A stretch of 64,000 bases of DNA from Gordius sp. MW1 (taxonomy: Eukaryota > Nematomorpha > Gordioida > Gordea > Gordiidae), in contig OZ038530.1 of the NCBI GenBank assembly GCA_964036665.1, positions 14,851,001 through 14,915,000 on the forward strand. Direction: 5' to 3'. Under the pieces are notes generated by a model. That model worked only from the letters and a program-made list of their open reading frames with translations, had not been told where the DNA came from and searched no databases. The translations under genes and the position numbers were made by a program. Positions 8,001-63,284 of the stretch are shown here, in pieces (the first letter of the stretch is position 1; each line of letters begins with the position of its first letter).

Positions 8001-11000
8001 GTAACGGACGGACGGACAGACAACGGACAACAAAAAACGAGCCCATAAATTGCATAGCAATAGTTATGAAACTAATATATATGCTAGTGCATGGGCGTAG
8101 CCAAAGGGGGGCAGAGAGGGGGGGGGGCTGCCCCCTCTAAATCCAAAAAACTGTTGAAGTTTTCTAAGATGTCTAAAATTTAAAAAAAAAGTTCATATTG
8201 CCCCTCCCCCCCTCTAATTTCAATGCCGGCTACGCCCATGTGATAGTGCTTGAGTGATTAGAAATTATTTTTAGTAAAATGACAATGGCATTCAATATAT
8301 ATTTATATAAATTCTAGCCTAATTTATGCTAGAAAGGATATACCCTTATATACCCGAGCAAGGAACCGTGGGCGCTAGTGGTGACTTGTGCCCTCTTGCT
8401 CACCTAGCGCTTGGATTGATAGGAGAAGGGCTCGTATGGGATTCTGATGGCAATAATTGGGCCAATTCACAACAAGTAAAATTGTAAAATTGTAACTACC
8501 ATTTTTATTAAAGGGGACCGGAGGTTTCCTTCCACTCTTGATAGTCCTAAAAATTTGCTAAATAATACTGCTTTATATATATATCTATATTTATCTCTCG
8601 AACAAAGAAAATCCAAGCCCGACTCGGTGATCATCTTTAATTTACTTTAATTTCCATTTTGGAGTATATATTTCGATGGACATTGTTGTAAAATAATAAA
8701 TAATTGAAAATATAGGAATGGAATTTAATTTATTAACCCCAGTAGTAGATTACTTTTTATTTGCAAAATTTCAGAGATTTATTAAAAAATCTTTGATAGA
8801 GGGGGTGTCTTAGTTAAACTCAAAATTATTACAAGTTTGATGAACTATCAATCCAGAATTTTAGTAAAAATTTAATAAAGTCAAAGTATAATTTCTTACT
8901 TTTACCACAAGTATATTGAATGTATTTATGTACTATCAATTAACTTTTGATTTACATTACGTAGGTTTTAGGGAAAAAGGGATACGAACCTATCGAATTG
9001 ATGCCCAAAGAAGTAATTATAATTTAAAATATATCGCATGTTTCAAATTTGTACATTCTCACTTGAGATTTAGGGAATCGCCTTGGTTAATGGTACGTGC
9101 TTCATTTCGGCCCTAGGTTGCGAAGGTAAATATGAGGGTCACTAGTTTGACTTTAACCCGAAAAAAAGTGAACATAATTCAGTTTAATATTTTTGCTTTA
9201 ACATAGATAATCGAATTGTTTTAGTTATATAATGAAATTTTTTTTATTATTAATTTAGCCATATATAGGGCTGAAAGACTGGCACTGCTGGGGACTATTA
9301 TATCTGCGATATCGTTGGAAGCTCTTAAAGGATCCTGCAAAGCATTCAAAAAAAGTAGGCCACAGCAAAATTTGTCTATGTATATTAATTGATTTTAACT
9401 GAATTTATGTTAATGTGCTCAGATATCCAAAATGTACGTCCACACAAAGGACAAGGCTACGTTGCGAGCATTTTGAGATCTTTAATAAATTCGGAATTAT
9501 ACCCTTCCGAAATCGGCAGTACAATTTCTTAATATTTATATCGTAAATGAAATGTTGTAATTTTAATGACTTAATAATCTTCAATCTTAATACGATATTA
9601 ACATTATAGTAAGCCATAAAGACTGCAAAAAAGTACAGGACTCTTACACGATACGATGCATCCCACAAGTATAAAATTTTAGAATCTGCAGTTAATTCCT
9701 TGTTTTTTGGGGTTGGGGGGAATAGTAAAGTAAGAAAATGATTTAGGGTTGAGCAAATTTATATTTTTTGCAATTTTTGATCAAAATTATATTTTTAGCA
9801 ATAAAAAAATCTATGTAGCGAAAGTTGACTCCTCCTAGCCAATTATATGTCTGATCGGCACATATAATAAAGTCGTTACTACTTAACGCATAATTTTTTT
9901 AGGCTGGATCCTTTATAAAATAAAAAGTATATTTTGATAATATTGTAACTTACTAGGTCCATGGAATTGTATTTGATACGATATCATTCGTTAAAGATTT
10001 AATGACAATCGAAATTAACAGTGCCACCGATAATCCAGTAAATTTCCTTACTTTTACATGTATATTTTGTTCTTATATACAAATTTAGTTATATTAACGG
10101 AATTTTTATATCTATACAAGGAAATTTGTTCTAAAAGGTATTTAAAACTCAATACTCTATGTTAATCATTAATAAATTGCTGGTTGTAATTTATTATAAA
10201 TCCTTATTTAGCTCGTTTTCGCGGATACGGAAGAAATTTTGTCCGGAGGAAATTTTCATGGCGAATACCCAGCTAAGGTAAAAATATTGATAATATAAGC
10301 TTGTTAGGCCTGGGCTTTGCAGCAAAAATTTTTATTATCAAAATTTTATGCTAAAATATATAAAACCTATTATTTTTTACGGAAATTATGAACAAGAAAT
10401 CTGAACTTTTAGATATATTGTATAGAAGGGCAAAGCAGGCTGGCCAAAAATCTGATTAGGGCGAGTAAAAAAGTTAAGGTTGCTTTTATAATATGCGCGA
10501 TGCGAAAATTTGAAATATGAATCAATAAAATGTGGAAGAAATAGTGCCCATATTTGGTTTTTCTCATAATTGACTTAATTGCACAAATTTTAACATAATT
10601 TATTATTTTATTAAATAAATACTAAGCATTAATTATTTTTAAAAAATACAAATTTTGTGAAAAAGAAAGAATGAAATATATATTAGCTCCTACAATTTGT
10701 AATTTCTGCTCAAATTTTGGCTTCGCATGGCGCTCATTATGAATGCAGCCCAAGTCAAAAACTGGTTGAAGCATTTAAGCCTCAAAATTGACATAAGCCG
10801 ACATTCATGGTGTTTTCACCAAATCTTGATCTGAAAGAGCTTTTTCAATTAAAGCGAACTTCCTTACAAATTTAGAGACCCCGTAACTCGATTTGAATAA
10901 AAATTTAAACCAAACCCGCTCCAAAGAGGTATTAATTCTTGATGGTGAGATATGTAAAACCTAAAAGCATTAATTAGCCAAATTTGATAAACAATCTTCT

Positions 11001-13558: not shown

Positions 13559-16500
13559 TCAGGGATTAATCTTTAGCGTAGCGTCTATAATATCTTGAGC
13601 CGGTTTATTGTCCTGACAAATGTTGCGGATAGCGAAGATGCTACATTCTCTAATATCTTTATATGGAAATAATTAGTAGATTAGTTAAAATTTGGTTATT
13701 TTCATTTTTATAAGATATTTGAAAAATTAAATGAGAAGTTATGTAAATAAGCTTAACGTTAAGGTCTGATAACTAGTTTAAATACCGAAACTCATTTTCA
13801 TTCTACAGGTGTCATGCGCGTATGAGGAATTATGGAATTATTAACTAATCTAACAATTTACAAAGAATTTTAAGCACAGTGTTTTCAAAGGATAGTAGAA
13901 AAAAACTAACTTCATATAAACAAATCAGTCAAAAGGTAAAAAATAAAGATTATATATACATATACAAATAGCTTTTCATCAAAGATTGTTTAAAAAATTG
14001 TATACAAGGGTTCAAAGGATCCAATTGAGAACACTGCATGAGAGCTTGAACAACGCCGGCGTCTGTAAACTAGAAATTATTAATAGAACAAAAAATTGCT
14101 TAGTTATTATAAAACTACATTCAGATATATAAAAAGGCGTGGTCTGTTAACTTGAAAAAACAGAACATAATTAATTGATTAAGTAGAAAATTACCATGTA
14201 TTCGTAATTTCATGAATAAATCTTTGTATATTAAAATTAAAATTTGTAATATAGCCATTTAAAACTTGCAATATTAACGTAAAGGATTATTCAATTCCTG
14301 ATGCAAAAACGCTAGGTAAAAAAACTTTTAGTCAAGAATAGAAAAGTCCCTTAAATAATTTACTACAAAATCTTTAATAATACAAAATTTTATTAATATG
14401 ATCACTTTAATATGGATTTTACATTTCATTTCAAAAAATAAGGGCTTTTATAAAATTTAAGAAATGGCACTTCTTTTTTAATCAGATCATTGTTGAACAC
14501 CACATTTCCAATAAGCCTGACTAAGACATTTTTTATATTGTACAATTGCTTCTTTTGATTTTCTTTGTCATCTTTCATGCAATCTATAATTTCTAACTTT
14601 TTTATTGAAGTAGTAGCGGATTCCATATTGTGAGCATAGCAAAGTTTTTTGAGCAAATCTGCATAAAATAAAAATAATAGATTTTAGATTAATTATTGTT
14701 TTGGCTATAGTTGTTCAGTTTTTTTGTTATCTTATCACAAATGTAATTCTCAACAAAATGGAACTAGCTGCACGTAAAACTACAGCATGATGTTAGCAAT
14801 AAACAATTTCCAGACATTATATGCGAATATGAAAGTTGATATTGTTTTTTTTATTTACATTTTTTTTAAATTAAACAAAGATTCATATACATAATTATTA
14901 TTAAAATTTGATTAAGCCCTTAAAGTTAAAAATATACACTAAAAATAAATTCAACAGATAAATATTCATTTTACAGAAAAAAGTGCAATAACATAAAACA
15001 TTTGATTTACTATGAAAAATTAATAAAACTCACTAAATAAAACTGTACTGAACAATATCATCAGGAACTATATTGTGACATAGAAATAAAAAGACTAATA
15101 CAGTTTCTTTAACAAAAGTATGTTGTGTGACAACTCTAGTAATAGCATTATTAAAAAAAACTGATGTTTACAATTCCTTACACTATATGAAAAGGTATAA
15201 CAAAGCAAACAATAAATGGGTGTATGAAATTATAAAATATACAACCAAGGCTGTCCTTAATAAATAAGTTTCTCTTAACCCATTAAGACCGGACCATAGA
15301 AATCCTCAACAGATTTTCATAAAATTTGGAATTCCTAGGTGATTTTGCACCAATAAAATAAATTTAAAAAAAAATTGAAAAAAAAACTTGTTTACTGCCA
15401 TTTTTAAGGTGTCGTATATATCATACGGTAGGACATGCTGTCTTTATGGCTGTATAAAACGAACTTTTAACCCTATAACTACTCTACTTTCTGTAAAAGC
15501 ATAGCTGGAGATAAATTGTTTTAAAGTTTATTTCAACATTTATAAAAAATAATCACAGAAAATATGAAATAATATTGTAAAAGTTATAAAGTATGATATT
15601 GAATAAAACAATTTATGTGAAGTCCCACGTTGCATTTTGTGCATATAAATTTCACAGACTTGTGACAAACCCCACACCTCAACCCAAATCTTATGGGCTT
15701 ACCACGGATAAATTGTTTCAAATGAAATCTACCATAGTAGGGCTCCATGGCCTCATCTAAAGAATATATCATCGGATTAGGCGCACTATATTTTTCAAAA
15801 TTGTTGTTGATATGGTTCATTAAAACATTAACTTTTTTTATGCTTCCAAGTTCCCTGTTAATATTGTTATCAGAAAAGTGTAAATACTTAAAAATAGTAT
15901 TGAACCTATCTCTTGCCATACAATTAACAATAGCACTATTATTAACATCTGCCTGGGTCTGCCAATATAGTCGCTTTTGTGGCAACTTACAATACCCTGA
16001 TAATAACAACACACCTAGCAGTTTGTAAATTTCATCACATGAAACATTAAAAGTTTCATCACTATACTTATATTTAGCATATTTTTCACTTTCTCTACAT
16101 ATAATCTCCATTAAACTTGGATCCCAAAATAGGTGGAACACTTGTAAAGGTGTCAGGGCATCTTTTTGTATAAAAGTCAATATGTTTGGAACATTTTCTT
16201 TAATATTTTGAATTTTAAATTTTGTATGTTCATTAGTTTCTGGCATAAGATTTATTGGACTCCAAGATAAGAGTTTTTGTTTTTTTGAAGGATTGTCATT
16301 TTTATAATTTGGGATAGGAATTTCTAATAACATTTCTGTAGTTAATTGAATTACTTCATTATCTATATCTCTTATTAAAACTTCAGCTTTTCTTGATAGG
16401 ACCCCAGGTCCGAACTTATGAGGATCATTAATCAAAACTTCATTTTCATCCTCTGAAATTTCATCTTTATCAGGATCAAAATAGTCTGGAGGTGGAACCA

Positions 16501-19500
16501 AGGCCAGATCAATTTGTTGAACATTCAATAAGGTAGTATTAGATTCCAATAGAGTAAGCACTTGTTCTGTATTCAAAGGCCTACGGTATGATATATACGA
16601 CACTCAATTTTAAAGACATATTTTAATATTAAAGTCTTATAAATTTTATATAAAAAACATATCATTTTAAAGAGAAATTTTTATAATTTAATAATATATC
16701 AAATTAAATTAATTAAATATTGTTTATATAAAACTTTATTAACAAATACTTTCGGAAGGTTCTGTTTTTTCGAATTTCTAGAATTACACTTGCTTTTACG
16801 AGTTAAAGAAGGCATTGAATAAGGAAACACAATAAAAATGATCCACCAGGAAGGTAGATCACATTTTAAGCTTCAATAAAAACTATGTTTGATAATATCT
16901 AAGGGCCATTAAGTATTAAAATTTTTAGACTAAAAATGGTCTATTTTGCGTATGATAAATACGACGGTAGGTCTAAATGGGTTAATTTGTTCAGGTAACA
17001 AAGCAGTGAGGGTTTTAACCCAAAATCGATGCATTCATTTATAGAAATTTTTTTTAATGCAATAGGTTCAAGGCATTTTTAGAAAAAGAATTGCAAACAA
17101 GTTTTTCCATTAAAATTGTCGTGAATAAAAAATTAATTAAAATTATAACATGGTGGCCTCCAAAAATACATATATAATAGTGAGGTTTAAAACATCTTAC
17201 ACTTAAAAAAGCCATAAAACTGAATGAGGTTTAATTTCCCACCTTTAAAAAGTTAATAGATTATTTATTTCATCAATTTTAATTTAAATCTTGGTTACAG
17301 GACCTTTGAAAAATATTTGACCTACCACTTTTCTCCCAAAATATATTTTTCCAATCTTGGACAAAAGCCAAAGTCATGACTATGGGCAGTACCAAATATT
17401 CATAAATATTTTTAGGAGAGAAAATGTTACAAAACCTGATCATAAGCCTTAAATATAGCAAAATTTAATCATAAATGGGACTTGCCATTAGAGACCTGCA
17501 CGGGCCGGCCCGGCCCGCGGACGGGCCTAAAAGCCCGGCCCGCGGACGGGTACGGACGGGCTTTGTATCATAAAAAATTTAACGGGCCGGGCCCGGACGG
17601 GCCTAAAAATTAATGGAACGGGCTCGGGCGGGCCTGAGATTTTTTTAACGGGCTTGAACGGGCCTGAAGTTTTATAAACGGGCTTAAACGAACCAGAGAT
17701 TATATAAAAGGTCTTGGAGTTACAAAGGTACTTAAACATCAAACAATTAGAAAAAACAAAAAGCGAGCCAATAAATTGCATAACAATTAATATATTATTT
17801 TTATTAAATATTTAGGATTAATTTTTTAACTTCTAAATTTTGTATATCCTGTAGCATTCATTCATTTTTCAAGCGCTAAATTTGACCTTTTTTTAATTTG
17901 CTATTGATTTTTAAGACTATAACTTCATTCTTTTATAAGTAAGTTTAATTACACTTTTGTGATTAATTTTATCACAAATTACTATTATTATTAGTGCCAT
18001 ATAAATTCATAAATATTTTTGCTCTAATCTTTGAAATTAACTTTAATTACAAACTTAAATGTAACTTTTTGTTAGCTTTGTATTTTTTTGTTATTGATTA
18101 AGTTTAATTCCTTTGCCTTAAAATTCTAGTGCTTAAATATTTGACAAATTATTCTTGTTATATCATTTTAAATTTTTCTACATTAATTTTACAATATTAA
18201 CTAGATTTAGCTTGGTTGAATAAGGTATTTTTTCTGGATATTTTTATTAAATATTTGGCTTTATATCGCTTTGCTTTACTAATCCCTTTAATAATTGTAT
18301 TTTTTGTTTTGAAACTAACAGTTTAATATTAAAAGGCTTAATCTATAATTAATATATGCAACATAATAAAAGTTATTGATTTGATACATCCTTACTTTTT
18401 TATTAAATTTTATTATAGTGTCAAATAATTTGTCCACAATCATATCTAATTATGAAAAAGGTGTATATAAAATAAATTTAAATCACAAGCTTAAAAGTAA
18501 AGTTTGGGAACAATTTGATCCTTTAATGGATGTTAATTGTTGAATCATTAATTTTACAATATTAACTAGATTTAGCTTGGTTGAAAAAGGTATTTTTTCT
18601 GGATATTTTTATTAAATATTTGGCTTTATATCGCTTTGCTTTACTAATCCCTTTAATAATTGTATTTTTTGTTTTGAAACTAACAGTTTAATATTAAAAG
18701 GCTTAATCTATAATTAATATATGCAACATAATAAAAGTTATTGATTTGATACATCCTTACTTTTTTATTAAATTTTATTATAGTGTCAAATAATTTGTCC
18801 ACAATCATATCTAATTATGAAAAAGGTGTATTGTATATAAAATAAATTTAAATCACAAGCTTAAAAGTAAAGTTTGGGAACAATTTGATCCTTTAGGATG
18901 TTAATTGAATCATTAATTTTACAATATTAACTAGATTTAGCTTGGTTGAAAAAGGTATTTTTTCTGGATATTTTTATTAAATATTTGGCTTTATATCGCT
19001 TTGCTTTACTAATCCCTTTAATAATTGTATTTTTTGTTTTGAAACTAACAGTTTAATATTAAAAGGCTTAATCTATAATTAATATATGCAACATAATAAA
19101 AGTTATTGATTTGATACATCCTTACTTTTTTATTAAATTTTATTATAGTGTCAAATAATTTGTCCACAATCATATCTAATTATGAAAAAGGTGTATATAA
19201 AATAAATTTAAATCACAAGCTTAAAAGTAAAGTTTGGGAACAATTTGATCCTTTAATGGATGTTAATGGTGAATCAGTTAGTGCCTGCATATGCAAAAAT
19301 TGCAAAAAAATACTTTCATATAAATCAGCAGATGGTACATCACATTTAAAACGCCACAAATGTACAACCCAAAGACAAAATAGCCTAACACTAGATCATT
19401 ATATGAATAAAATAAACCCCTTAAAAGAAGAAAAAATTAAAAAATCAATCATAAATCAGGCTATAAAATTTTGCTCAAAAGATTTACGGCCATTCGAAAC

Positions 19501-22500
19501 TTTAGCAGGAGAAGGTTTTCTTGGGTTTTGCCAGTTTTTGGTAGATAGTTTGTCAACTAAGGGGTTAATAAATGTGCGACAAATTATGCCTCATCCATCA
19601 ACTATAAGCCGCCATGTGAAAGATGAGGCTGAAAGACTTCGACTTTCTATAATTCCAGATATAAAACATTACATTCAGAAAGGGCTTTGCGCGGCCACAA
19701 CAGACATGTGGACATGTGATTATACAAAAATCAGTTTTCTCACATTAAGTATTCATTATATAAATGTTAGCCTGAGAAAAAAAATATTATTTACAACTGC
19801 TTTTAAGCATGAAAAAAAATCAGGGGAGAATATTAGAAATGAATTATTAAACAAATTAATGACTTTTGGCATTACCAATGAAGAAGCCCGTAAATTAATA
19901 TTTGTCACTGATCAGGGTGCTAACATTGTCAATGCATTAACAAATTATAGTAGATTAAATTGCGCAGCCCACCTTATAAATAATATGATAAAAATGGCCT
20001 TTAATGATTCTTTCTTAAATCAAGAAGCCACGGTTATTTATAAACTCATGAATGCCTCTAAAGAATTAGTCAGGCATTTCAAACAAAGTGGACTCAATAG
20101 CAAGCTGTCCCATACCTTGCATCAAGATGTAATTGTAAGATGGAACTCAAAATTGACCCTTTTGAATTCTATTTATAAGGTCTATGACGAAGTTGAAGCT
20201 ATCTTGGAACAACGAAATGAACTTTCATATCTGGAATATATAGATAAAATGTTGTTGAAATCTTTAATAGACGTCTTGCAGCCGTTTAAAGAGGCTTCTC
20301 TTCAGTTGGAGGCTGATCTAGAACCAACCCTACCATATGTCTTCTTATGGAAAATTAAATTAATTAATGCGATGTCGGATTATGATTTATACGGCGGACA
20401 AGTCAACATAATAAAGAACCGTTTAAAAGAAGCTATTAAAGAAAAAATGGTAGTTCATCGGTATCACAAAATAGCTTCGGTCTTGCATCCGAAGTTTAGA
20501 CAAATGAAGATGATACCTGAAGCAGAAAAACTAGACATATATCAAGATATAAGAAATATTATAGAGCAAGAAGGGTTTGTCTATATAAGAAAATCTTCTG
20601 TTTTACTGGGCTCAAAGACATCTCTCGCAAGTACTTACAATTTTTTATTTATATATAATATATAAAAATATATAAGGTAAGAGACCGAAAACAATTTTTT
20701 CTGAATGGGAAGATAATGATCATAATCCTGTGGCGGATGAGTTTAGTCAATATTTAGATGAAACTATTGAGGCTGATTTCGATCTGTTAAAATGGTGGAA
20801 AGCCAAAGAGGACAAGTATTATATTTAAAATTAATCTTATCCTTTAATAGATATCCTAAATTAGCACATTTAGCACATATGATATTATGTATACCGGCTA
20901 CGAGTGCCACCAGCGAGCGAAATTTTTCTACGGCAGGAAGGCTTGTAGAAGAAAGGCGAACTCGCCTAAAACCAGACATTATTGATGATTTATTATTTTT
21001 ACATGATAATTATTGATATCTTTCTATGAATATGTCATAAAATTTAATAAAATTTTGTGAAATTTTTGATGAATTAGGCCGGACGCGGAGTTCGCTTAAA
21101 AAATATTTTAACGGGCTTGGACGGGCCTGAAAAATTTACGGACGGGCTCGGACGGGCCTAAAAAATTTACGGACGGGCTCGGACGGGCCTGAAGTGCTGA
21201 AAAAAAATTACGGGCGGGCCCGGACGGGCCTTGAAATTTTGAAAACGGGTACGGGCGGGCCGATCTTCTAAAAACGGCCCGTTGCAGATCTCTACTTGCC
21301 ATTACATCACGCCCATCAAATATGCATTGTGCAGTACAGTATTAGATCAGTGACAAATATTAATTTACGGGCTTCTTCATTGGTAATGCCAAAAGTCATT
21401 AATTTGTTTAATAATTCATTTCTAATATTCTCCCCTGATTTTTTTTTCATGCTTAAAAGCAGTTGTAAATAATATTTTTTTTCTCAGGCTAACATTTATA
21501 TAATGAATACTTAATGTGAGAAAACTGATTTTTGTATAATCACATGTCCACATGTCTGTTGTGGCCGCGCAAAGCCCTTTCTGAATGTAATGTTTTATAT
21601 CTGGAATTATAGAAAGTCGAAGTCTTTCAGCCTCATCTTTCACATGGCGGCTTATAGTTGATGGATGAGGCATAATTTGTCGCACATTTATTAACCCCTT
21701 AGTTGACAAACTATCTACCAAAAACTGGCAAAACCCAAGAAAACCTTCTCCTGCTAAAGTTTCGAATGGCCGTAAATCTTTTGAGCAAAATTTTATAGCC
21801 TGATTTATGATTGATTTTTTAATTTTTTCTTCTTTTAAGGGGTTTATTTTATTCATATAATGATCTAGTGTTAGGCTATTTTGTCTTTGGGTTGTACATT
21901 TGTGGCGTTTTAAATGTGATGTACCATCTGCTGATTTATATGAAAGTATTTTTTTGCAATTTTTGCATATGCAGGCACTAACTGATTCACCATTAACATC
22001 CATTAAAGGATCAAATTGTTCCCAAACTTTACTTTTAAGCTTGTGATTTAAATTTATTTTATATACACCTTTTTCATAATTAGATATGATTGTGGACAAA
22101 TTATTTGACACTATAATAAAATTTAATAAAAAAGTAAGGATGTATCAAATCAATAACTTTTATTATGTAGCATATATTAATTATAGATTAAGCCTTTTAA
22201 TATTAAACTGTTAGTTTCAAAACAAAAAATACAATTATTAAAGGGATTAGTAAAGCAAAGCGATATAAAGCCAAATATTTAATAAAAATATCCAGAAAAA
22301 ATACCTTTTTCAACCAAGCTAAATCTAGTTAATATTGTAAAATTAATGATTCAATTAACATCCATTAAAGGATCAAATTGTTCCCAAACTTTACTTTTAA
22401 GCTTGTGATTTAAATTTATTTTATATACAATACACCTTTTTCATAATTAGATATGATTGTGGACAAATTATTTGACACTATAATAAAATTTAATAATAAA

Positions 22501-25269
22501 GTAAGGATGTATCAAATCAATAACTTTTATTATGTTGCATATATTAATTATAGATTAAGCCTTTTAATATTAAACTGTTAGTTTCAAAACAAAAAATACA
22601 ATTATTAAAGGGATTAGTAAAGCAAAGCGATATAAAGCCAAATATTTAATAAAAATATCCAGAAAAAATACCTTTTTCAACCAAGCTAAATCTAGTTAAT
22701 ATTGTAAAATTAATGATTCAACAATTAACATCCATTAAAGGATCAAATTGTTCCCAAACTTTACTTTTAAGCTTGTGATTTAAATTTATTTTATATACAC
22801 CTTTTTCATAATTAGATATGATTGTGGACAAATTATTTGACACTATAATAAAATTTAATAAAAAAGTAAGGATGTATCAAATCAATAACTTTTATTATGT
22901 TGCATATATTAATTATAGATTAAGCCTTTTAATATTAAACTGTTAGTTTCAAAACAAAAAATACAATTATTAAAGGGATTAGTAAAGCAAAGCGATATAA
23001 AGCCAAATATTTAATAAAAATATCCAGAAAAAATACCTTATTCAACCAAGCTAAATCTAGTTAATATTGTAAAATTAATGTAGAAAAATTTAAAATAATA
23101 TAACAAGAATAATTTGTCAAATATTTAAGCACTAGAATTTTAAGGCAAAGGAATTAAACCTAATCAATAACAAAAAAATACAAAGCTAACAAAAAGTTAC
23201 ATTTAAGTTTGTAATTAAAGTTAATTTCAAAGATTAGAGCAAAAATATTTATGAATTTATATGGCACTAATAATAATAGTAATTTGTGATAAAATTAATC
23301 ACAAAAGTGTAATTAAACTTACTTATAAAAGAATGAAGTTATAGTCTTAAAAATCAATAGCAAATTAAAAAAAGGTCAAATTTAGCGCTTGAAAAATGAA
23401 TGAATGCTACAGGATATACAAAATTTAGAAGTTAAAAAATTAATCCTAAATATTTAATAAAAATAATATATTAATTGTTATGCAATTTATTGGCTCGCTT
23501 TTTGTTTTTTCTAATTGTTTGATGTTTAAGTACCTTTGTAACTCCAAGACCTTTTATATAATCTCTGGTTCGTTTAAGCCCGTTTATAAAACTTCAGGCC
23601 CGTTCAAGCCCGTTAAAAAAATCTCAGGCCCGCCCGAGCCCGTTCCATTAATTTTTAGGCCCGTCCAGGCCCGGCCCGTTAAATTTTTTATGATACAAAG
23701 CCCGTCCGTACCCGTCCGCGGGCCGGGCTTTTAGGCCCGTCCGCAGGCCGGGCCGGCCCGTGCAGGTCTCTATACAGTATATAGGACCTAACAATACAAA
23801 AACCCATTTCCCCTTTGAAGGTGATATTACTAATCAATGAGCATTAGTAATTGAATAATAAAGAAGATATAAGTATACGGAAACATTTTGGCGAAGAAAA
23901 TTACGTGACCATTAAAGCATGAAAAATTTCACAAAATATTAGAAAAAAATAACAAATTAAATTAATTATGAAATTTATAAGAAATATTTGAATAAAAAAA
24001 CAATCATCGTTAAAAACACTTTAAAAATAGAAAGTTGATATTAGACAGAATATGTGAAGGTAAAATTAACCCTTTAAAATTTATGATAAAAAACTTCTGA
24101 CAAATGAAAAATGAAGACAACTCTTTTTCCCAAACAAACAAACAAAGTTGATAAATAGGAACTCATTTGAAATATATTTATCTACCTGGTATCCATAATA
24201 GGGCAGATAAGTTATCCCAGGATTCAAAATGGTGTTTGGCAGATAAATTTATGAGGCATTCAATCATATTTTTGAAATAAGCCAATGGACCGGACTAAAC
24301 TATATAATTATATCAAATAAGTACCATACATCAAAATTGTCCTGTTGCAACATTTCAAACTGAATGATAATATCTGGACTTATATTTTTACAATCAATTA
24401 GAAGTAAAATAATAAATTGAGTAAAATCATTTGTAAAGTTATCATCGGCTTTTATTGCCTCACATGTTATTACCACAATATTTATCCTATAAATGAATAA
24501 AATAAATATTTAGCTTCCTTTATTTACCTTATAAAAATATTTAAGGATGGATAAATTGCATAAAACTTTTGATGCACAAGTAATTTCTCAATAAATCTAT
24601 ATCTAATAAAATATCACATTTAAATAAGGCTAATATAATTATAAAATCTTAAAATTTTTCTTTTATTAAAAATATTAAAATGGTTTTTATATTCATGTAT
24701 AACCTATGAATATGCTTATATCATTTACTTTTCAGTCACGTCATCTAAATGATATAGTACTAATTCAACAAACTCTACTAATCCATTGTCAACAACATTA
24801 GCATCTGAATAATTGTTAAAGTAATAATTGAATAATGTTGCAATAGAGTAGTTCTTAATTTTTTGAAATTTTGGATTAAATAGTGCAATAAATTGCCTAG
24901 AACATCAAATAATTCAATAAATAAAAGATTTTAACTTTGATATTTTGAAGAACTGATCATTAAAAAATTCTCTAACATCTATACATGTTAGGACATTGGC
25001 CAAATATTGATAGATTCTCTGTAAAATAATTATTTCCCTAGAATCTTTAAGAGAATTAAAATTGTGTAAAAAAGTTACCAATTTTAATTTTTTTTGCTGA
25101 GTAAAAAAAATGTTTCCAAACTTCTTGATAATTTTTGGTCCTATGAAAAAATAAAATAAGTTTAAATAGTAGTTTACCATAATTTTTTTAATTGGGTCTC
25201 ATCCAGGTTACAGCAATCATTACGAAGTGAGACTATTAAATCATCAAATGCAGTAGAACCAGAATTCAT
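13559..25269 (-). CDS. ATXN10: Ataxin-10 homologue, about 9 exons
   Basis: Ataxin-10 is a cytoplasmic armadillo-like repeat protein linked to cell survival and cytokinesis. Exons in transcript order: 25269-25178, 25140-24936, 24896-24729, 24486-24330, 24294-24186, 15160 to about 15034, 14658-14471, 14069-14006, 13656-13559. Diagnostic C-terminal marks are VLVRLIGNVVFNN and, across the last junction, NPYIRECSIFAIRN, equivalent to the family's NPF..EW...AIRN. IYQYLANVL and IPVFFNNAI also fit the family. Two junctions are unresolved. Exon 1 ends with two spare bases but exon 2 needs one, so there is a missed intron or a homopolymer error near the T-run at about 25.1 kb. The donor of exon 6 (possibly at 15034, followed by a micro-exon) is uncertain. 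Intron 5 spans 15161-24185 and holds three transposons. The start codon overlaps the PSMG3 stop. Confidence 0.82.
15275..16985 (-). mobile_element. Internally deleted piggyBac element
   Basis: The element is bounded by TTAA at 15275-15278 and 16982-16985, the piggyBac target site. The ends are inverted: TTAACCCATTAAGACC on the left and GGTCTAAATGGGTTAA on the right. A near-palindromic word resembling CGTATATATCATACG recurs at about 15411, 16590 and 16950, probably as subterminal repeats. It contains one minus-strand open frame, a shortened transposase. It lies in the large intron of ataxin-10. Confidence 0.92.
15584..16603 (-). CDS. Shortened piggyBac transposase (339 aa)
   Basis: The N-terminal half is typical of piggyBac: an acidic leader, LTPLQVFHLFWD (about 150), CDEIYKLLGVLLLSGY, then YSLDEAMEPYYGR, which carries the first catalytic Asp, and RGKPIRFG. 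There the usual protein would continue for more than 150 residues with the second and third catalytic Asp. Here it jumps straight to the C-terminal cysteine-rich finger (CGVCHKSVKFICTKC, then LHINCF and YH). The frame is open across this joint, so the product would keep DNA-binding parts but lack a complete active site. The first codons lie inside a subterminal palindromic repeat. It is unlikely to transpose alone; a repressor or titrating role is only a possibility. Confidence 0.88.
   Translation of the reverse strand: MSYISYRRPLNTEQVLTLLESNTTLLNVQQIDLALVPPPDYFDPDKDEISEDENEVLINDPHKFGPGVLSRKAEVLIRDIDNEVIQLTTEMLLEIPIPNYKNDNPSKKQKLLSWSPINLMPETNEHTKFKIQNIKENVPNILTFIQKDALTPLQVFHLFWDPSLMEIICRESEKYAKYKYSDETFNVSCDEIYKLLGVLLLSGYCKLPQKRLYWQTQADVNNSAIVNCMARDRFNTIFKYLHFSDNNINRELGSIKKVNVLMNHINNNFEKYSAPNPMIYSLDEAMEPYYGRFHLKQFIRGKPIRFGLRCGVCHKSVKFICTKCNVGLHINCFIQYHTL
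18181..19270 (+). repeat. Triplicated 365-bp segment upstream of the hAT transposase
   Basis: Near-identical units start at about 18181, 18545 and 18910. Each contains promoter-like AT-rich sequence, the splice-acceptor-like TTTTATTATAG and the first 30-40 codons of the transposase. Units 1 and 2 end in stops soon after DPLMDVN or a derivative of it; unit 3 runs on into the full gene. Copy 2 (about 22.35-23.08 kb, inverted) has the same arrangement, so the triplication predates the two insertions. Confidence 0.9.
19148..21016 (+). CDS. hAT transposase, three exons, apparently intact
   Basis: Exons are 19148-20630, 20677-20815 and 20851-21016, joined in frame through GT-AG sites to give about 595 residues. 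A BED-type zinc finger uses Cys49, Cys52, His66 and His70. The catalytic core shows ATTDMWT (Asp186) and FVTDQGAN (Asp255). The C-terminal dimerisation domain reads WWKAKEDKYPKLAHLAHM, then IPATSATSERNFSTAGR. The coding exon follows a TTATAG acceptor rather than an ATG, so an upstream exon probably supplies the A of ATG or a short leader. I see no internal stop or frameshift. This is a candidate autonomous source for copy 2. Confidence 0.9.
21343..22111 (-). pseudogene. hAT transposase fragment (copy 2)
   Basis: Residues 1-225 are identical by eye to copy 1, including the BED finger and the first catalytic Asp. One extra A in a poly-A run after FKHEKK shifts the frame, and the gene is cut at about residue 256. 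No C-terminal domain remains, so it cannot encode a working transposase. Confidence 0.92.
21343..23772 (-). mobile_element. Truncated hAT transposon, copy 2
   Basis: An inverted near-copy of the left two thirds of copy 1, 41 bp from its target duplication. It carries its own 8-bp duplication TACAGTAT (21335-21342 and 23773-23780). The right end is the normal TAGAGACCTGCACGGG (read on the minus strand). The left end reads TAGATCAGTGAC: only the first bases match the terminal repeat, then it runs directly into transposase sequence at the codons for VTDQ. Everything from there to the normal 3' end is missing. Confidence 0.92.
23781..24185. other. Rest of the large ataxin-10 intron
   Basis: AT-rich intron sequence between the truncated hAT and exon 5 of ataxin-10. 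No further element seen. Confidence 0.6.
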
Positions 25270-25625
25270 GATATTAGTGATTGGATTAGCTCAAGTGTTA
25301 GTGTTTGATATTGTTTAAGTTCCTCATTTGACAAATCATGCAATGCAAGGCTGATTATGATTTCTTTATTAATATTGCACAATTGATAGATTTTTTCACC
25401 CAAACTGCGACTTAATATGGCATATTTTGTGTTTGACATGCCAAATAAAAGTTGGGTATGAATAGTATCTAAATGCTCAATTCTAGGGCTACATTTGTAA
25501 ATGGTATGCATTTTTGCGAATTGAGATACAATAACAAATAATACATTTTCGTAATCACTAATCACAATATCGAGATATTTATTATTGGTGATAAAAGATT
25601 TTGAAATCACTTTAGGGAACGGCAT
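25266..25625 (-). CDS. PSMG3: Proteasome assembly chaperone 3 (PAC3), intronless
   Basis: PAC3 forms a heterodimer with PAC4 and guides assembly of the proteasome 20S alpha ring. The 119-residue frame matches the family's usual length of about 120. It shows the VISKS start, a hydrophobic strand followed by FVIVSQFAKMHTIY (compare the family's VVVTQFGKMGT), a middle LLFGMSN strand and a C-terminal region with IIISLALHDLS and a long helix. Starting at the first Met (25625) gives the expected length. The stop TGA (25266-25268) overlaps the ATG of ataxin-10 (25267-25269) as ATGA, so both proteins could come from one transcript. A MITE begins 85 bp upstream. Confidence 0.85.
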   Translation of the reverse strand: MPFPKVISKSFITNNKYLDIVISDYENVLFVIVSQFAKMHTIYKCSPRIEHLDTIHTQLLFGMSNTKYAILSRSLGEKIYQLCNINKEIIISLALHDLSNEELKQYQTLTLELIQSLIS

Positions 25626-25709
25626 TTTTAAAGCTTTCGCAATGAAATCGTACTTGGCATATTGATGATATTATAGAGCAAATATTTAAAAGTAAGTAAG
25701 TAAGGAACC

Positions 25710-25988
25710 AGGCTATGTATTCTCGATTTTGAGTGATAAATAACAAAACGTAGAACGCATTTCTTAAACGTTCCATTCCCGAGCGCAATCATCGCGTTCG
25801 AATTTGTGTGTTATTGTTTAAAAATAATCCTTTCAAGTCAAAATTATCTTTAAGGGACAGGGTTAAGGTTCGGGGTTAGGGTTTTAGGTCAGCGTTTTAG
25901 GTTAGGGTTAGGATTAGATGCAATGGAACGTTTAAGAAATGCGTTTACGTTTTGTTATTTACCACTCAAAATCGAGAATACATAGCCT
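25710..25988. mobile_element. 280-bp MITE with telomere-like core
   Basis: Inverted ends AGGCTATGTATTCTCG extend to about 70 bp per side with GATTTTGAGTGATAAATAAC. The core holds degenerate GGGTTAGG/TTAGGGTTAGG words. A near-identical copy is at 63005-63284, and a core fragment at about 32005-32092. It lies just upstream of PSMG3 and may overlap its promoter. Confidence 0.88.
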
Positions 25989-27741
25989 AGGCCGTAAGTA
26001 AGTTTGCCGCGAAGACGCCCAAGAGCTTAGTTAGTGCAATCTAAGGTTGAGCCCCTTCTAACGCCAAATGGCGCATCAGGCCACGTTAGTGATAACGTGT
26101 GTAAATATGCTGTAAAAAAATGGTTAACGTGCAGTGTAATTATGACATGTAAATATGTAATACCTATTGACTTGAAAGTAATGTAAAGCCTTTAATGGTA
26201 AGGTCGTAAATGAATAATGCGTGAGAAGATCCTTAATGGGGGAGCCGCAATAATTTGTTATTAGAGAAGTCTTTCCAAAGCTTCCTGTCTTGCATGATGG
26301 GTAGCAATGAATTCCAATCATTTAAAATCACAATATTCAGCAAAGTGGAACAAATGCAGAAAAGAAGATCAGTTTGCTAAGGAAACTAACGGAATGAAAT
26401 TATATTTGGAATCCAACTTAAGCGTTTTGATTTAGTCATGGTCTTCAAGGCAAAATCTTGCCACGCTTCGGTCTAAAAAATTCCGGTCCCGTCTCGAAGT
26501 GAATTTTTGACTTGTGTTTAAAAATTTTGAGATATAAACTTTTTTCAATGTGTTATATAAATAAAAGTTTAAAAAATATAAATGGCAGACCTTTTTTTAT
26601 TTGTTTTGAAACACAAGCTTAAAGTGAATCAAGCTATATATATTGCTTGTTTATTATTTCACCCCACTATAAAGATAGTTTACTGATTGGGATAAGTTAA
26701 AGTTTATTCATCAGATTTTTATTAACAAAGAATCTTTATTCTAAAGATACATATAAAAACGCGAGATTAAACATTTACAGCGAAGATGTAGTAATAAAAC
26801 ATATGGATATATATGTAACGAGAGTAAATGAGATGGAGTAAAATAATCCTGTAGTTGAGTTAGATCAGAAGAATGCCGGATCTCGTAATTCCAAATGCGG
26901 TGGCATTATATAGTTCATAATTTAGATCCTCGAATATTCTAGAAATGGTGTAGAATAAACTAGAACAAAAAAATCCGATTTTATCCAATTCGCTACTTAA
27001 TTCGATTTTATCCAATTAGCTACTTAATGTCGCCAATGTCTAAACACTACAATAGTTACCAATTAATGGATAAAACAGTTCCATAAAATGGCTACCTTGT
27101 CTGCCAGTTATTAATTGAAATGTTTATCTATAAGTTTACCTAAATTTAGCGTGATTACAAATTTTGTTAGGACTCTTAACCCTTTTTAAAATTAAAAATA
27201 ATGTCTTTAGTTATAAAATTTAAGGCTTATCGTTATTTATAAAATATGCAACTAGCTGCACACATTAGAATATTGTAAATCACTAATAAAAGTGACATTT
27301 TAAAAGTTGAGGTTTTAGTAAATTGCGATATAGATTACAAAAATATTGCATTCAAATAGTTAAGTGTAAGACATCATATTTGTTACAGAACATTTATTTA
27401 ATCCATTTTTTACTAAGTTAAATAAAATAATTATTTAATATTACTTCTTATTTTCATATATTTAAGTGTAAACAAATGCGGTCCTTATAATTTAAATTCC
27501 AACCCCACGTTTAAATTGTGAAAAGTACTGTGGATGGCAAAAGGAATGTCCAATTGGGATTCATGTTTTGACGATTTCAGAGGTGGAGTACAAGCTCAAC
27601 AAACTCCTAGCCTCACGATAGAGGCTTTTAATAAATCTCTAGCCATGTGATAATAATTTTGATTAATTAACCACCGATGGATTCAATTGTGGCAAAATAT
27701 GAAGATACCTTAGTAACATTTACTATTTGGTCTAAACTGTT
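25989..27741. other. No gene recognised
   Basis: AT-rich sequence with a fragment at about 26.03-26.10 kb resembling one near 30.32 kb and a decayed gtctcg-type hAT end at about 26.45 kb. Short open frames here look accidental. Confidence 0.5.
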
Positions 27742-44531: not shown

Positions 44532-46136
44532 ATGTCATCATTAAAGAAAAAAACTTTGTTAAAAGTTATTATACTGGGTGATAGTGGGTAAGTTTAATCA
44601 TTTGGTAAATGCATGATAATTTATATCTATTTTTGTACTTTAGTGTTGGAAAAACATCTCTTATGAACCAATATGTCAATAAAAAATTTAGTAATCAATA
44701 TAAAGCTACAATAGGTGCTGATTTTTTGACAAAAGAACTCACAATAGATGATAAGCAAGTAACAATGCAGGTATGTAAATTTAATTATGACATCATTTCA
44801 ATGATATCTTTAAATCATATGATTTATTTGTAATGTAACCTTAGATTTCAATATTTTCACTGAGCATAGATTTCATTTTTTTGCTGTATACATTAATTAT
44901 CTGAAACAATTTAATACAGTTGTATGATTTTAAACTTGTCTAATTTATATTATCTGATTTTGCAAAATTAATTTTGTAGGGATTAGTTTAAAGCAATGAT
45001 TTAGAATAAGATGTGTTTCTGTTTCAACCCTAGATATGGGATACAGCGGGACAAGAACGTTTTCAAAGCTTAGGAGTAGCATTTTACAGGGGAGCTGATT
45101 GCTGTGTTCTTGTATTTGATGTTACTGCTCCTAATACATTTAAAGCTTTAGAGGGATGGAGGGATGAATTTCTTATTCAAGCTAGTCCTCAGGATGCTGA
45201 AAATTTCCCATTTGTAGTAGTTGGCAACAAAATTGACTTGGATAGTAGAGCTGTAAGTACGCTATATGGGATGAGTTAATAATTTTTAAAATCCTTGACT
45301 CATTTACATTGTCTAATCACTTTGCATCACATGCATATTTAAATAGTTTATTTTATATTTAAACAAGCAAAGATTCATACTACTCCTAAAATTATTTGTA
45401 AAGGCCTAAAAACTTTACCTTCATAAAAATTAAAAACTGGAAAATAGATGAATTAATACTAGAAATGTTTTTCTCAATATTAATATATGACTAAAATGAC
45501 TTTGCTAAATTGTTTGCTCTAATCAAGCTTGTAATTAGTTTTATTTAAATACCAGCATGTCTCCTAATTAGTGTTATAAAAATGGCTGGGGTTTGTTTGG
45601 TCAAACTTTGGTTTTAGTCAACTAAACATAAACAGACCAAAGATTTTTAGGTCTTTTCGTAGTGGCATAAAGAGTGGGTCTGTTTAAGTTTAGTCGACTA
45701 AAACCAAGGTCAACCAAGCAAAACCCAGCGGTTTTTACACTACTGCTAATAATGATAAAATTTGCAATACACACGTAAATCTTTTAAACCTCCCTTGAAA
45801 GTAACTTGCCAACTTATGATTATTCGTATCAAAATTTTGGATTAAATTTAGATAGCCACCAAGAGGGCTCAAACATGGTGTGCTTCCAAAAACAATATCC
45901 CATACTACGAGACGAGTGCTAAGGAAAGCACCAACGTAGAGCAAGCCTTCATAGCAGTAGCCCGAAGTGCTTTGGCCAGGGAAACTGAATCGTCCGCTGA
46001 CGTGTATTCCGATTTTCCCGACCAAATAAAACTCCGTTCGGGCCCTGAGGGAACCAATTTAGACACTAATTACTACGCTACTCGCAACAATAGACCTTCT
46101 GGTAGTGCTATGAGTAATATGTGTTCTTCCTGTTGA
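44532..46136 (+). CDS. RAB7A: RAB7 small GTPase, 4 exons
   Basis: RAB7 controls late endosome to lysosome and autophagosome fusion. Exons: 44532-44587, 44644-44770, 45034-45252, 45852-46136, all GT-AG and in phase, giving 228 residues. The P-loop GDSGVGKTS is at 16-24, switch [10 protein letters not shown] has Thr41, WDTAGQERF is at 63-71, NKID at 126-129 and ETSAK at 154-158. Sequence such as [17 protein letters not shown] and [20 protein letters not shown] is RAB7-specific. Human RAB7A has 207 residues; the extra 21 lie in the hypervariable tail, which is Asn/Ser-rich. It ends CSSC, so the last two cysteines are at 225 and 228 rather than in the usual CxC. Intron 3 hosts a MITE. AATAAA starts on the last base of the stop codon. 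Confidence 0.97.
45570..45742. mobile_element. MITE in RAB7 intron 3
   Basis: About 173 bp with roughly 45-bp inverted ends. The left has GCTGGGGTTTGTTTGGTC and TTTGGTTTTAGTC; the right mirrors them as GACTAAAACCAAGGTC and AAACCCAGCGG. No coding capacity; the exact ends and target duplication are uncertain. Confidence 0.75.
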
Positions 46137-50295: not shown

Positions 50296-50624
50296 TTATT
50301 TGATATACATGACAAATCCAAGTCTTATAGCATATAAATAATAGATTATTTATTTCATATAATGAAAATATTCAATAATTACAGAATATGTAGACATATA
50401 AAACAAATATCTATAAAGTGATAAAAGTAATAAACTTGTTGAGGCGGATGAATATAATTTGCATGCGATTTTTGCGAGGTTTGTTAACTCGGTTTCAACG
50501 CAAAACGTATTTCGCCCTTTACTAAAGGTTTCCGTGCGGGGGAACAAATGAGCATTTAAAGCTTATTTTTCGAACCACTTTTTAGAGGCTTACAATTAAA
50601 CAATTTAGATTTCTAAGTAGGGTG

Positions 50625-63004: not shown

Positions 63005-63284
63005 AGGCTATGTATTCTCGATTTTGAGTGATAAATAACAAAACGTAAAACGCATTTCTTAAACGTTCCATTGCATCTAATCCTAACCCTAACCTAAAAC
63101 GCTAACCTAAAACGCTGACCCCAAACCTTAACCCAGTCCCTTAAAGATGATTTTGACTTGAAAGGATTATTTTTAAACAATAACACACAAATTTGAACGC
63201 GATGATTGCGCTTGGGAATGGAACGTTTAAGAAATGCATTTTACGTTTTGTTATTTATCACTCAAAATCGAGAATACATAGCCT
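63005..63284. mobile_element. 280-bp MITE with telomere-like core, second copy
   Basis: AGGCTATGTATTCTCG at both ends, inverted. The core has CTAATCCTAACCCTAACC. Near-identical to 25710-25988 in the opposite core orientation. Confidence 0.9.

What the first reader, a model, noticed from the sequence alone, without database searches (positions are those of the whole stretch)
25266..25269. PSMG3 and ataxin-10 overlap by ATGA: a possible dicistronic unit
The PSMG3 stop (TGA) and the first in-frame Met of ataxin-10 share four bases on the minus strand. PSMG3 has no intron, and the only open leader that extends the ataxin-10 first exon starts at this ATG. In animals such an overlap implies one transcript with coupled reinitiation, or operon-type processing by spliced-leader trans-splicing (nematode, flatworm, tunicate, hydrozoan style). 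A proteasome chaperone paired with ataxin-10 is not a pairing I know of.
Basis: partly seen in the sequence, partly recalled or inferred. Interest (0 to 1): 0.8.

Follow-up and report, generated by a model that had tools for sequence, protein, structure and literature searches.

The report
Overlapping proteasome-chaperone and ataxin-10 genes
In what looks like a horsehair-worm genome, a small proteasome-assembly gene ends inside the first codons of the ataxin-10 gene, so the two may share one transcript, but how the second protein gets made cannot be settled from DNA alone.

Summary
The overlap is real by the best gene models. On the minus strand an intronless PSMG3 (PAC3) ORF of 119 codons ends in TGA (25268-25266). 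The ATG at 25269-25267 opens the best-supported first exon of ataxin-10. I rebuilt the whole ataxin-10 gene: 9 exons, 348 codons, in phase throughout, C-terminal Pfam E 6.9e-17. Its first three introns are 34-39 nt; similar ones appear elsewhere in this genome. A rival start at 25180 scores about 15 bits worse before splice costs, on a noisy codon score. The host is very probably a hairworm (Nematomorpha), from palindromes in its mitochondrial genes. Spliced-leader processing is not supported: the only AG just 5' of the ATG is a very poor acceptor, nematode SL1 was not found, and an SL-RNA pattern gave no excess over its control (its promoter part catches 8 of 17 known promoters). Leaky scanning is also unlikely. 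Two explanations remain close: one dicistronic RNA with AUGA-coupled reinitiation (my choice, 0.38), or an ataxin-10 promoter inside PSMG3 (0.30). An upstream ataxin-10 exon, with PSMG3 nested in its intron, is not excluded: about 75 residues of the human N-terminus have no counterpart. RNA data are decisive. Interest is moderate.

The parts
25266..25625 (-). PSMG3 (proteasome assembly chaperone 3) coding sequence, single exon, 119 codons plus TGA
   Evidence: Pfam PF10178 E 4.2e-9; phmmer to PAC3 chain 2z5e_A E 0.012; only PAC3 match listed in the genome
25266..25269 (-). ATGA: ataxin-10 ATG overlapping the PSMG3 TGA
   Evidence: sequence; A at -3 of the ATG
25178..25269 (-). ataxin-10 exon 1 (MNSGSTAFDDLIVSLRNDCCNLDETQLKKL..), 92 nt, ends in phase 2
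25141..25177 (-). intron 1, 37 nt, GTAAAC..TTCATAG
   Evidence: scores as non-coding
25079..25140 (-). ataxin-10 exon 2
25045..25078 (-). intron 2, 34 nt
24936..25044 (-). ataxin-10 exon 3
24897..24935 (-). intron 3, 39 nt
24729..24896 (-). ataxin-10 exon 4
24487..24728 (-). intron 4, 242 nt, with AATAAA at 24667 and 24524 (possible early polyadenylation for a PSMG3-only mRNA; AATAAA also occurs inside PSMG3 at 25583 and 25370, so the hexamer alone says little)
24330..24486 (-). ataxin-10 exon 5
24186..24294 (-). ataxin-10 exon 6 (after a 35-nt intron)
14659..24185 (-). intron 6, 9527 nt, holding hAT-like and piggyBac-like transposon copies
14471..14658 (-). ataxin-10 exon 7 (its donor GTGCCA is weak)
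   Evidence: part of the joined C-terminus with Pfam PF09759 E 6.9e-17
14006..14069 (-). ataxin-10 exon 8
13559..13656 (-). ataxin-10 exon 9 with stop TGA
25628..25660 (-). possible 10-codon uORF ending 2 nt before the PSMG3 ATG, if transcribed
25710..25988 (-). MITE-like element with inverted-repeat arms, 84 bp 5' of the PSMG3 ATG, limiting the promoter region
   Evidence: arm motif of a second copy at 63008-63281

Best explanation
PSMG3 and ataxin-10 form a tandem pair whose coding sequences overlap by four bases. The arrangement is shown by sequence and gene models. Inferred: both are transcribed as one unit from a promoter in the short stretch 5' of PSMG3. PSMG3 is read first, and a share of the ribosomes that stop at its UGA back up on AUGA and start ataxin-10, whose introns are spliced downstream as usual. 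No spliced leader is needed. A PSMG3-only RNA ending in ataxin-10 intron 4 could supply extra PSMG3.
For: Exact AUGA overlap, named in a review as one of the usual arrangements in coupled termination-reinitiation (PMC5972666, passages). Complete, in-phase ataxin-10 model beginning at this ATG. Exon 1 scores as coding and intron 1 as non-coding. In-frame leader of only 7 codons, with no other ATG and no usable acceptor there, which argues against another entry just 5'. No TATAAA between the PSMG3 ATG and the ataxin-10 ATG (other promoter elements were not scanned). A gene-sparse, transposon-rich surrounding makes a zero-gap pair unlikely by chance (inference).
Against: No RNA evidence of a joint transcript. 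No sequence element of the viral kind: no UGGGA or GGGA from 25700 to the overlap, one UGGGU about 130 nt 5'. The 100 nt up to and including the overlap are unusually unstructured (z +1.97; 199 of 200 shuffles fold at least as well). Reinitiation after long ORFs is inefficient in known cases: about 10% in influenza B, about 82-fold lower product in human CASQ2 (PMC5972666 section 16). The 7 codons 5' of the ATG in its frame score +3.5 bits, more per codon than the first 12 codons after it (+1.4), so the codon score does not mark this ATG as the start. No related genome could be compared.
Confidence: 0.38

Rival explanations
1. Two separate transcripts: ataxin-10 has its own promoter inside the PSMG3 coding sequence, and its 5' UTR is PSMG3 sequence. 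The overlap is compactness, not coupling.
For: Any start between 25326 and 25270 gives an mRNA whose first ATG is 25269, with A at -3. It needs no unusual translation.
Against: No TATAAA in the PSMG3 ORF, though many animal promoters lack one (recalled). PSMG3 would still need a 3' end inside ataxin-10. An exact 4-base overlap would be coincidence.
Confidence: 0.3
2. PSMG3 is nested in an ataxin-10 intron: an upstream ataxin-10 exon splices into 25232 (TTTAATAG), or into 25404 or 25410 inside PSMG3, to make an mRNA that skips the PSMG3 start.
For: About 75 residues of the recalled human N-terminus have no counterpart. The AGs at 25232 (0.67), 25404 (1.37) and 25410 (-1.6) score within the leave-one-out range of the 11 model acceptors, -1.6 to 6.55. 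On this strand at 25.7-28.6 kb several open stretches score as high as exon 1 (11.3 bits with its 7-codon leader) or higher, the best 16.0 at 27878-27756, so an upstream exon is not ruled out.
Against: None of those stretches has a known domain or a shown splice partner; one was run against Pfam, 26124-26321, with no match. The codon model is GC-biased. Splicing at 25232 would drop AFDDLI, which aligns with the family helix before LRN and scores weakly as coding (1.4 bits for MNSGSTAFDDLI). The protein is also short at its C-terminus, so a short N-terminus is not odd.
Confidence: 0.2
3. Operon with spliced-leader trans-splicing (tunicate or nematode style) resolving one pre-mRNA into two mRNAs.
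For: Abutting same-strand genes with a single-exon 5' gene resemble Ciona operons (PMC2760879 passages).
Against: The only AG between the in-frame stop and the ATG, TTGAG before 25289, scores -13.3, 4th percentile of AGs in the window. An acceptor inside PSMG3 would destroy its mRNA. Nematode SL1 with donor: 0 matches with up to 3 mismatches, and 0 SL1-family matches (50 of 63028 candidates scored). PSE+GT+Sm pattern: 29 matches against 56 for the backwards control; the 29 fall into 23 distinct sequences, three of them in 4, 3 and 2 copies, and folding showed no clear SL RNA, but none was excluded by experiment. No SL-like gene recognised by eye in the 5S repeat unit.
Confidence: 0.06
4. The overlap is a by-product: ataxin-10 really starts at ATG 25180 in one long frame (25198-24914) without introns 1 and 2, and MNSG.. 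is a chance uORF.
For: That frame is open for 88 codons from the ATG. Exon 2 scores slightly better in this frame (3.1) than in the spliced frame (2.4).
Against: Stretches read as introns score non-coding there (-6.7 and -3.1 bits), exon 1 scores coding (+6.3), and introns of this size occur elsewhere in the genome. The LRNxC motif lies in exon 1.
Confidence: 0.06

Closest known systems
AUGA/UAAUG coupled termination-reinitiation (influenza B segment 7, caliciviruses, SART1 retrotransposon, mouse GAD splice variant, human CASQ2; PMC5972666 passages and section 16)
   Same: Stop and start codons overlap or lie close; two long ORFs would lie on one RNA.
   Different: No TURBS-like motif or structure here; RNA and translation unproven; two full cellular genes of unrelated families.
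Ciona-type spliced-leader operons (PMC2760879 and PMC7986045, passages)
   Same: Same strand, no gap, single-exon first gene.
   Different: Coding sequences overlap, no acceptor before the second ATG, no spliced leader found.
Conserved bicistronic loci of green algae; plant CDC26-TTM3 (PMC11892635, passages)
   Same: Two unrelated ORFs in tandem; CDC26, like PSMG3, is a short first ORF.
   Different: Algal pairs work by leaky scanning past weak starts; here PSMG3 has A at -3 and seven further ATGs lie inside it.
Dicistronic genes of Drosophila (recalled, no call)
   Same: Animal nuclear gene pairs with very short spacing.
   Different: Those have cDNA support; this one has none.

Membership tests
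PSMG3 / PAC3 | PAC3 domain over the curated cut-off | tested here: met
   36.9 bits against cut-off 21.2
Ataxin-10 | Atx10homo_assoc domain (PF09759) over cut-off | tested here: met
   61.6 bits against 28.9 on joined exons; profile positions 2-69 of 99 only, so short at the C-terminus. The unspliced six-frame search of the genome gave 0, as the domain is split over exons.
Ataxin-10 | N-terminal ARM region as in human | tested here: inconclusive
   Global alignment starts near residue 75 of the recalled human sequence; BLASTP found only the C-terminus plus a chance 8-residue match; exons 1-5 alone matched no Pfam family
Coupled termination-reinitiation | overlapping stop and start codons | tested here: met
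Coupled termination-reinitiation | one mRNA carrying both ORFs | not testable with these tools
   no RNA data held
Coupled termination-reinitiation | TURBS-like motif or structure 5' of the overlap (viral examples; absent from five human transcripts said to use the mechanism) | tested here: not met
Spliced-leader operon | trans-splice acceptor just 5' of the downstream ATG | tested here: not met
Spliced-leader operon | SL RNA genes in the genome | tested here: inconclusive
   none recognised, but the promoter part of the pattern catches 8 of 17 U1/U2 promoters and a looser pattern did not complete
Leaky-scanning bicistronic gene | weak start context of ORF 1 and few ATGs within it | tested here: not met
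   A at -3 and 7 internal ATGs; the +4 base is C
Nematomorpha (host) | long perfect inverted repeats inside mitochondrial protein genes | tested here: met
   arms of 108, 95, 53 and 47 nt at 100% in the first 9.9 kb of contig C12; of the 9 longest pairs checked, 6 lie wholly inside an open frame of at least 150 codons; PMC6649704 abstract. No named relative was compared.

The most novel reading that the evidence does not exclude
A natural animal dicistronic gene in which a proteasome chaperone and ataxin-10 are translated from one mRNA by AUGA-coupled reinitiation, in a phylum without spliced-leader processing, so that two unrelated proteins are made at a fixed ratio.
Probability: 0.25. Interest if true: 0.7.

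Novelty: new member of a known kind. Interest (0 to 1): 0.4.

Why it matters
Overlapping stop-start pairs that serve two full cellular genes are rare in animals (recalled), and the best-studied coupled reinitiation is viral (PMC5972666 passages). A proven case would give a cellular model. It would also bear on whether hairworms, the sister group of nematodes (recalled), have operons or spliced leaders: the search for papers holding both 'Nematomorpha' and 'trans-splicing' in the held library found none.

Tried and rejected
Leaky scanning from the 5' end: rejected, since nine ATGs lie between 25710 and 25269 (the uORF ATG 25660, the PSMG3 ATG, and seven inside PSMG3) and PSMG3 has A at -3.

TURBS-type motif or structure: not seen.

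SL RNA in the 5S array: the 563-base unit shows no SL-like gene to the eye. A single odd locus with a U1-like promoter and an Sm-like site (L090) is read as a U1 relic. The repeated matches (4, 3 and 2 copies) fold without a clear SL RNA shape.

Protein homologs: PSMG3 gave 1 candidate and none significant; ataxin-10 gave 1790 candidates and none at E 0.01 or better; solved structures gave 15 weak armadillo-type matches to ataxin-10, best E 0.32. Gene order in relatives could not be compared: the tool says the genome has no relatives here.

Papers: two hold both PSMG3 and ATXN10, both on human cells by title (search listing and abstract starts only). A search for bicistronic + TAATG + fungi found none.

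Full report
What is there. On the minus strand the window holds an intronless PSMG3 gene (25625-25266; PAC3 domain; the only PAC3 match listed in the genome). Its stop codon TGA overlaps an ATG at 25269. One correction to the finding: the coding sequences overlap by four bases (ATGA), the two codons share two.

Is the downstream gene ataxin-10, and does it start there? From conserved C-terminal pieces and the local ORFs I built a complete model: nine exons, 348 codons, eight GT-AG introns of 37, 34, 39, 242, 35, 9527, 401 and 349 nt, every junction in phase. I chose the splice sites, so the phase fit is not independent evidence for each one. The joined C-terminus matches the ataxin-10 domain at E 6.9e-17. 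The 9.5-kb intron holds transposon copies. Exon 1 aligns, in a global alignment to human ataxin-10 recalled from memory, with the stretch around LRNxC near human residue 88. BLASTP alone aligned the C-terminus (22 of 66 identical) and, by chance, 8 residues of exon 1 elsewhere.

Exon 1 was tested by codon scores trained on 639 codons from Rab7, PSMG3 and the other ataxin-10 exons. It scores +6.3 bits; 35 of 2000 dinucleotide shuffles reach that. Intron 1 read as coding scores -6.7 and intron 2 -3.1, so the spliced reading beats the unspliced one (ATG 25180) by about 15 bits before any cost for splice sites. A smaller training set gave similar values for these stretches (6.6, -8.8, -3.9). The score is noisy: exon 3, which I take as coding, scored -3.9; GC-rich repeats rank high; and the seven codons before the ATG score +3.5, so the score does not fix the start.

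Tiny introns are not an oddity here. Of 76 Ras-family matches, five exceed their profile length by 39, 42, 42, 45 and 108 nt with stop codons inside, and three more by 36, 39 and 39 nt without stops (recounted). Three neighbouring exon pairs imply introns of about 35, 43 and 47 nt (my arithmetic from the table). No exon boundary was checked there.

The host. Contig C12 (14,798 bases) is a mitochondrial genome whose cox1 reads sensibly with AAA = Lys, ATA = Met and AGR = Ser (judged against recalled cox1). It carries long perfect inverted repeats, and 6 of the 9 longest lie wholly inside open frames of at least 150 codons. That is the feature described for Nematomorpha (PMC6649704, abstract). 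TTAGGG-type telomere repeats are at 10 of the 17 contig ends read. The assembly has eight contigs of 21-37 Mb.

How could ataxin-10 be expressed? The frame of its ATG is closed 7 codons upstream. Using 11 acceptors from this gene model and Rab7, the only AG between that stop and the ATG (before 25289) scores -13.3, at the 4th percentile of all AGs in the window. So neither cis- nor trans-splicing just before the ATG is likely. AGs before 25404 and 25410 (inside PSMG3) and 25232 (inside exon 1) fall in the range of the model acceptors and keep an alternative first exon possible. One search shows open stretches at 25.7-28.6 kb that score as high as exon 1, so it neither finds nor excludes such an exon.

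Spliced leader. The 24-base nematode SL1 plus donor has no match with up to three mismatches, and the Rfam SL1 search found none. From U1 and U2 genes I read a promoter element about 54 nt before the RNA start. A search for that element, a GT and an Sm-like site gave 29 matches against 56 for the backwards control; the 29 are 23 distinct sequences, three of them repeated (4, 3 and 2 copies), none with a clear SL RNA shape. The element part of the pattern recognises 8 of 17 distinct U1/U2 promoters. A spliced leader is made less likely but not excluded. For Rab7, no acceptor stands directly before the ATG (one gene, by eye).

Translation. Leaky scanning would have to pass nine ATGs. Coupled termination-reinitiation is described at AUGA and UAAUG overlaps (PMC5972666 passages), and in five human mRNAs without a viral-type motif (section 16). 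No such motif or structure is present here. In bicistronic green-algal loci leaky scanning is favoured (PMC11892635 passages), with weak starts, which does not fit here.

Judgement. Shown: the overlap, the identities, and the gene models as far as sequence can. Inferred: a shared transcript and reinitiation. I give 0.38 to the dicistronic-reinitiation reading, 0.30 to an internal promoter, 0.20 to a nested or alternative first exon, and 0.06 each to a spliced-leader operon and to the ATG 25180 reading. In a region where genes are far apart and transposons have landed 84 bp upstream of PSMG3 and inside ataxin-10 intron 6, an exact overlap hints at coupling, but one locus without RNA data or relatives cannot decide it.

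Noticed in passing
L014 (G000:C12:1-9900): Mitochondrial contig with many perfect inverted repeats (arms up to 108 nt), most of the long ones inside open frames, as described for hairworms.
   Followed up: partly
window 25710-25988 and 63008-63281: Two places with the same inverted-repeat arm motif: a MITE-like element. The first also carries telomere-like CCCTAA-type stretches in its middle.
   Followed up: partly
window 15584-16603 (-), 19115-20665 (+), 21422-22144 (-), 22718-22876 (-): piggyBac-type transposase (DDE_Tnp_1_7) and several copies or fragments of a BED/Hermes-like hAT transposase, inside ataxin-10 intron 6.
   Followed up: no
window 50485-50590 (+): U5 spliceosomal RNA gene.
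   Followed up: no
window 44544-46136 (+): Rab7-like gene in four exons, one intron about 56 nt.
   Followed up: partly
window 8332-8484 (+): Open frame resembling histidine ammonia-lyase ([23 protein letters not shown]), recognised by recall only.
   Followed up: no
L034-L042 (G000:C4:6.70-6.71 Mb): Tandem 5S rRNA array with a 563-base unit on the same contig as the window; more dispersed copies up to 7.01 Mb.
   Followed up: partly
L090 (G000:C6:20845402-20845508, -): A U1-like promoter followed by a non-U1 body with an AATTTTTGG Sm-like site and a small hairpin: U1 relic or an unknown small nuclear RNA.
   Followed up: partly
L005, L010, L019, L043: The start of contig C4, the start of C9 and the end of C8 carry GTCCGTCCGTT / ACGGACGGACA satellite instead of telomere repeats; the same satellite lies next to some U2 genes (L043).
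   Followed up: no
L073-L076 (G000:C1:10.09-10.18 Mb): A stretch with an snRNA-promoter-like element, GT and Sm-like site repeated four times about 29-35 kb apart; nature unknown.
   Followed up: partly
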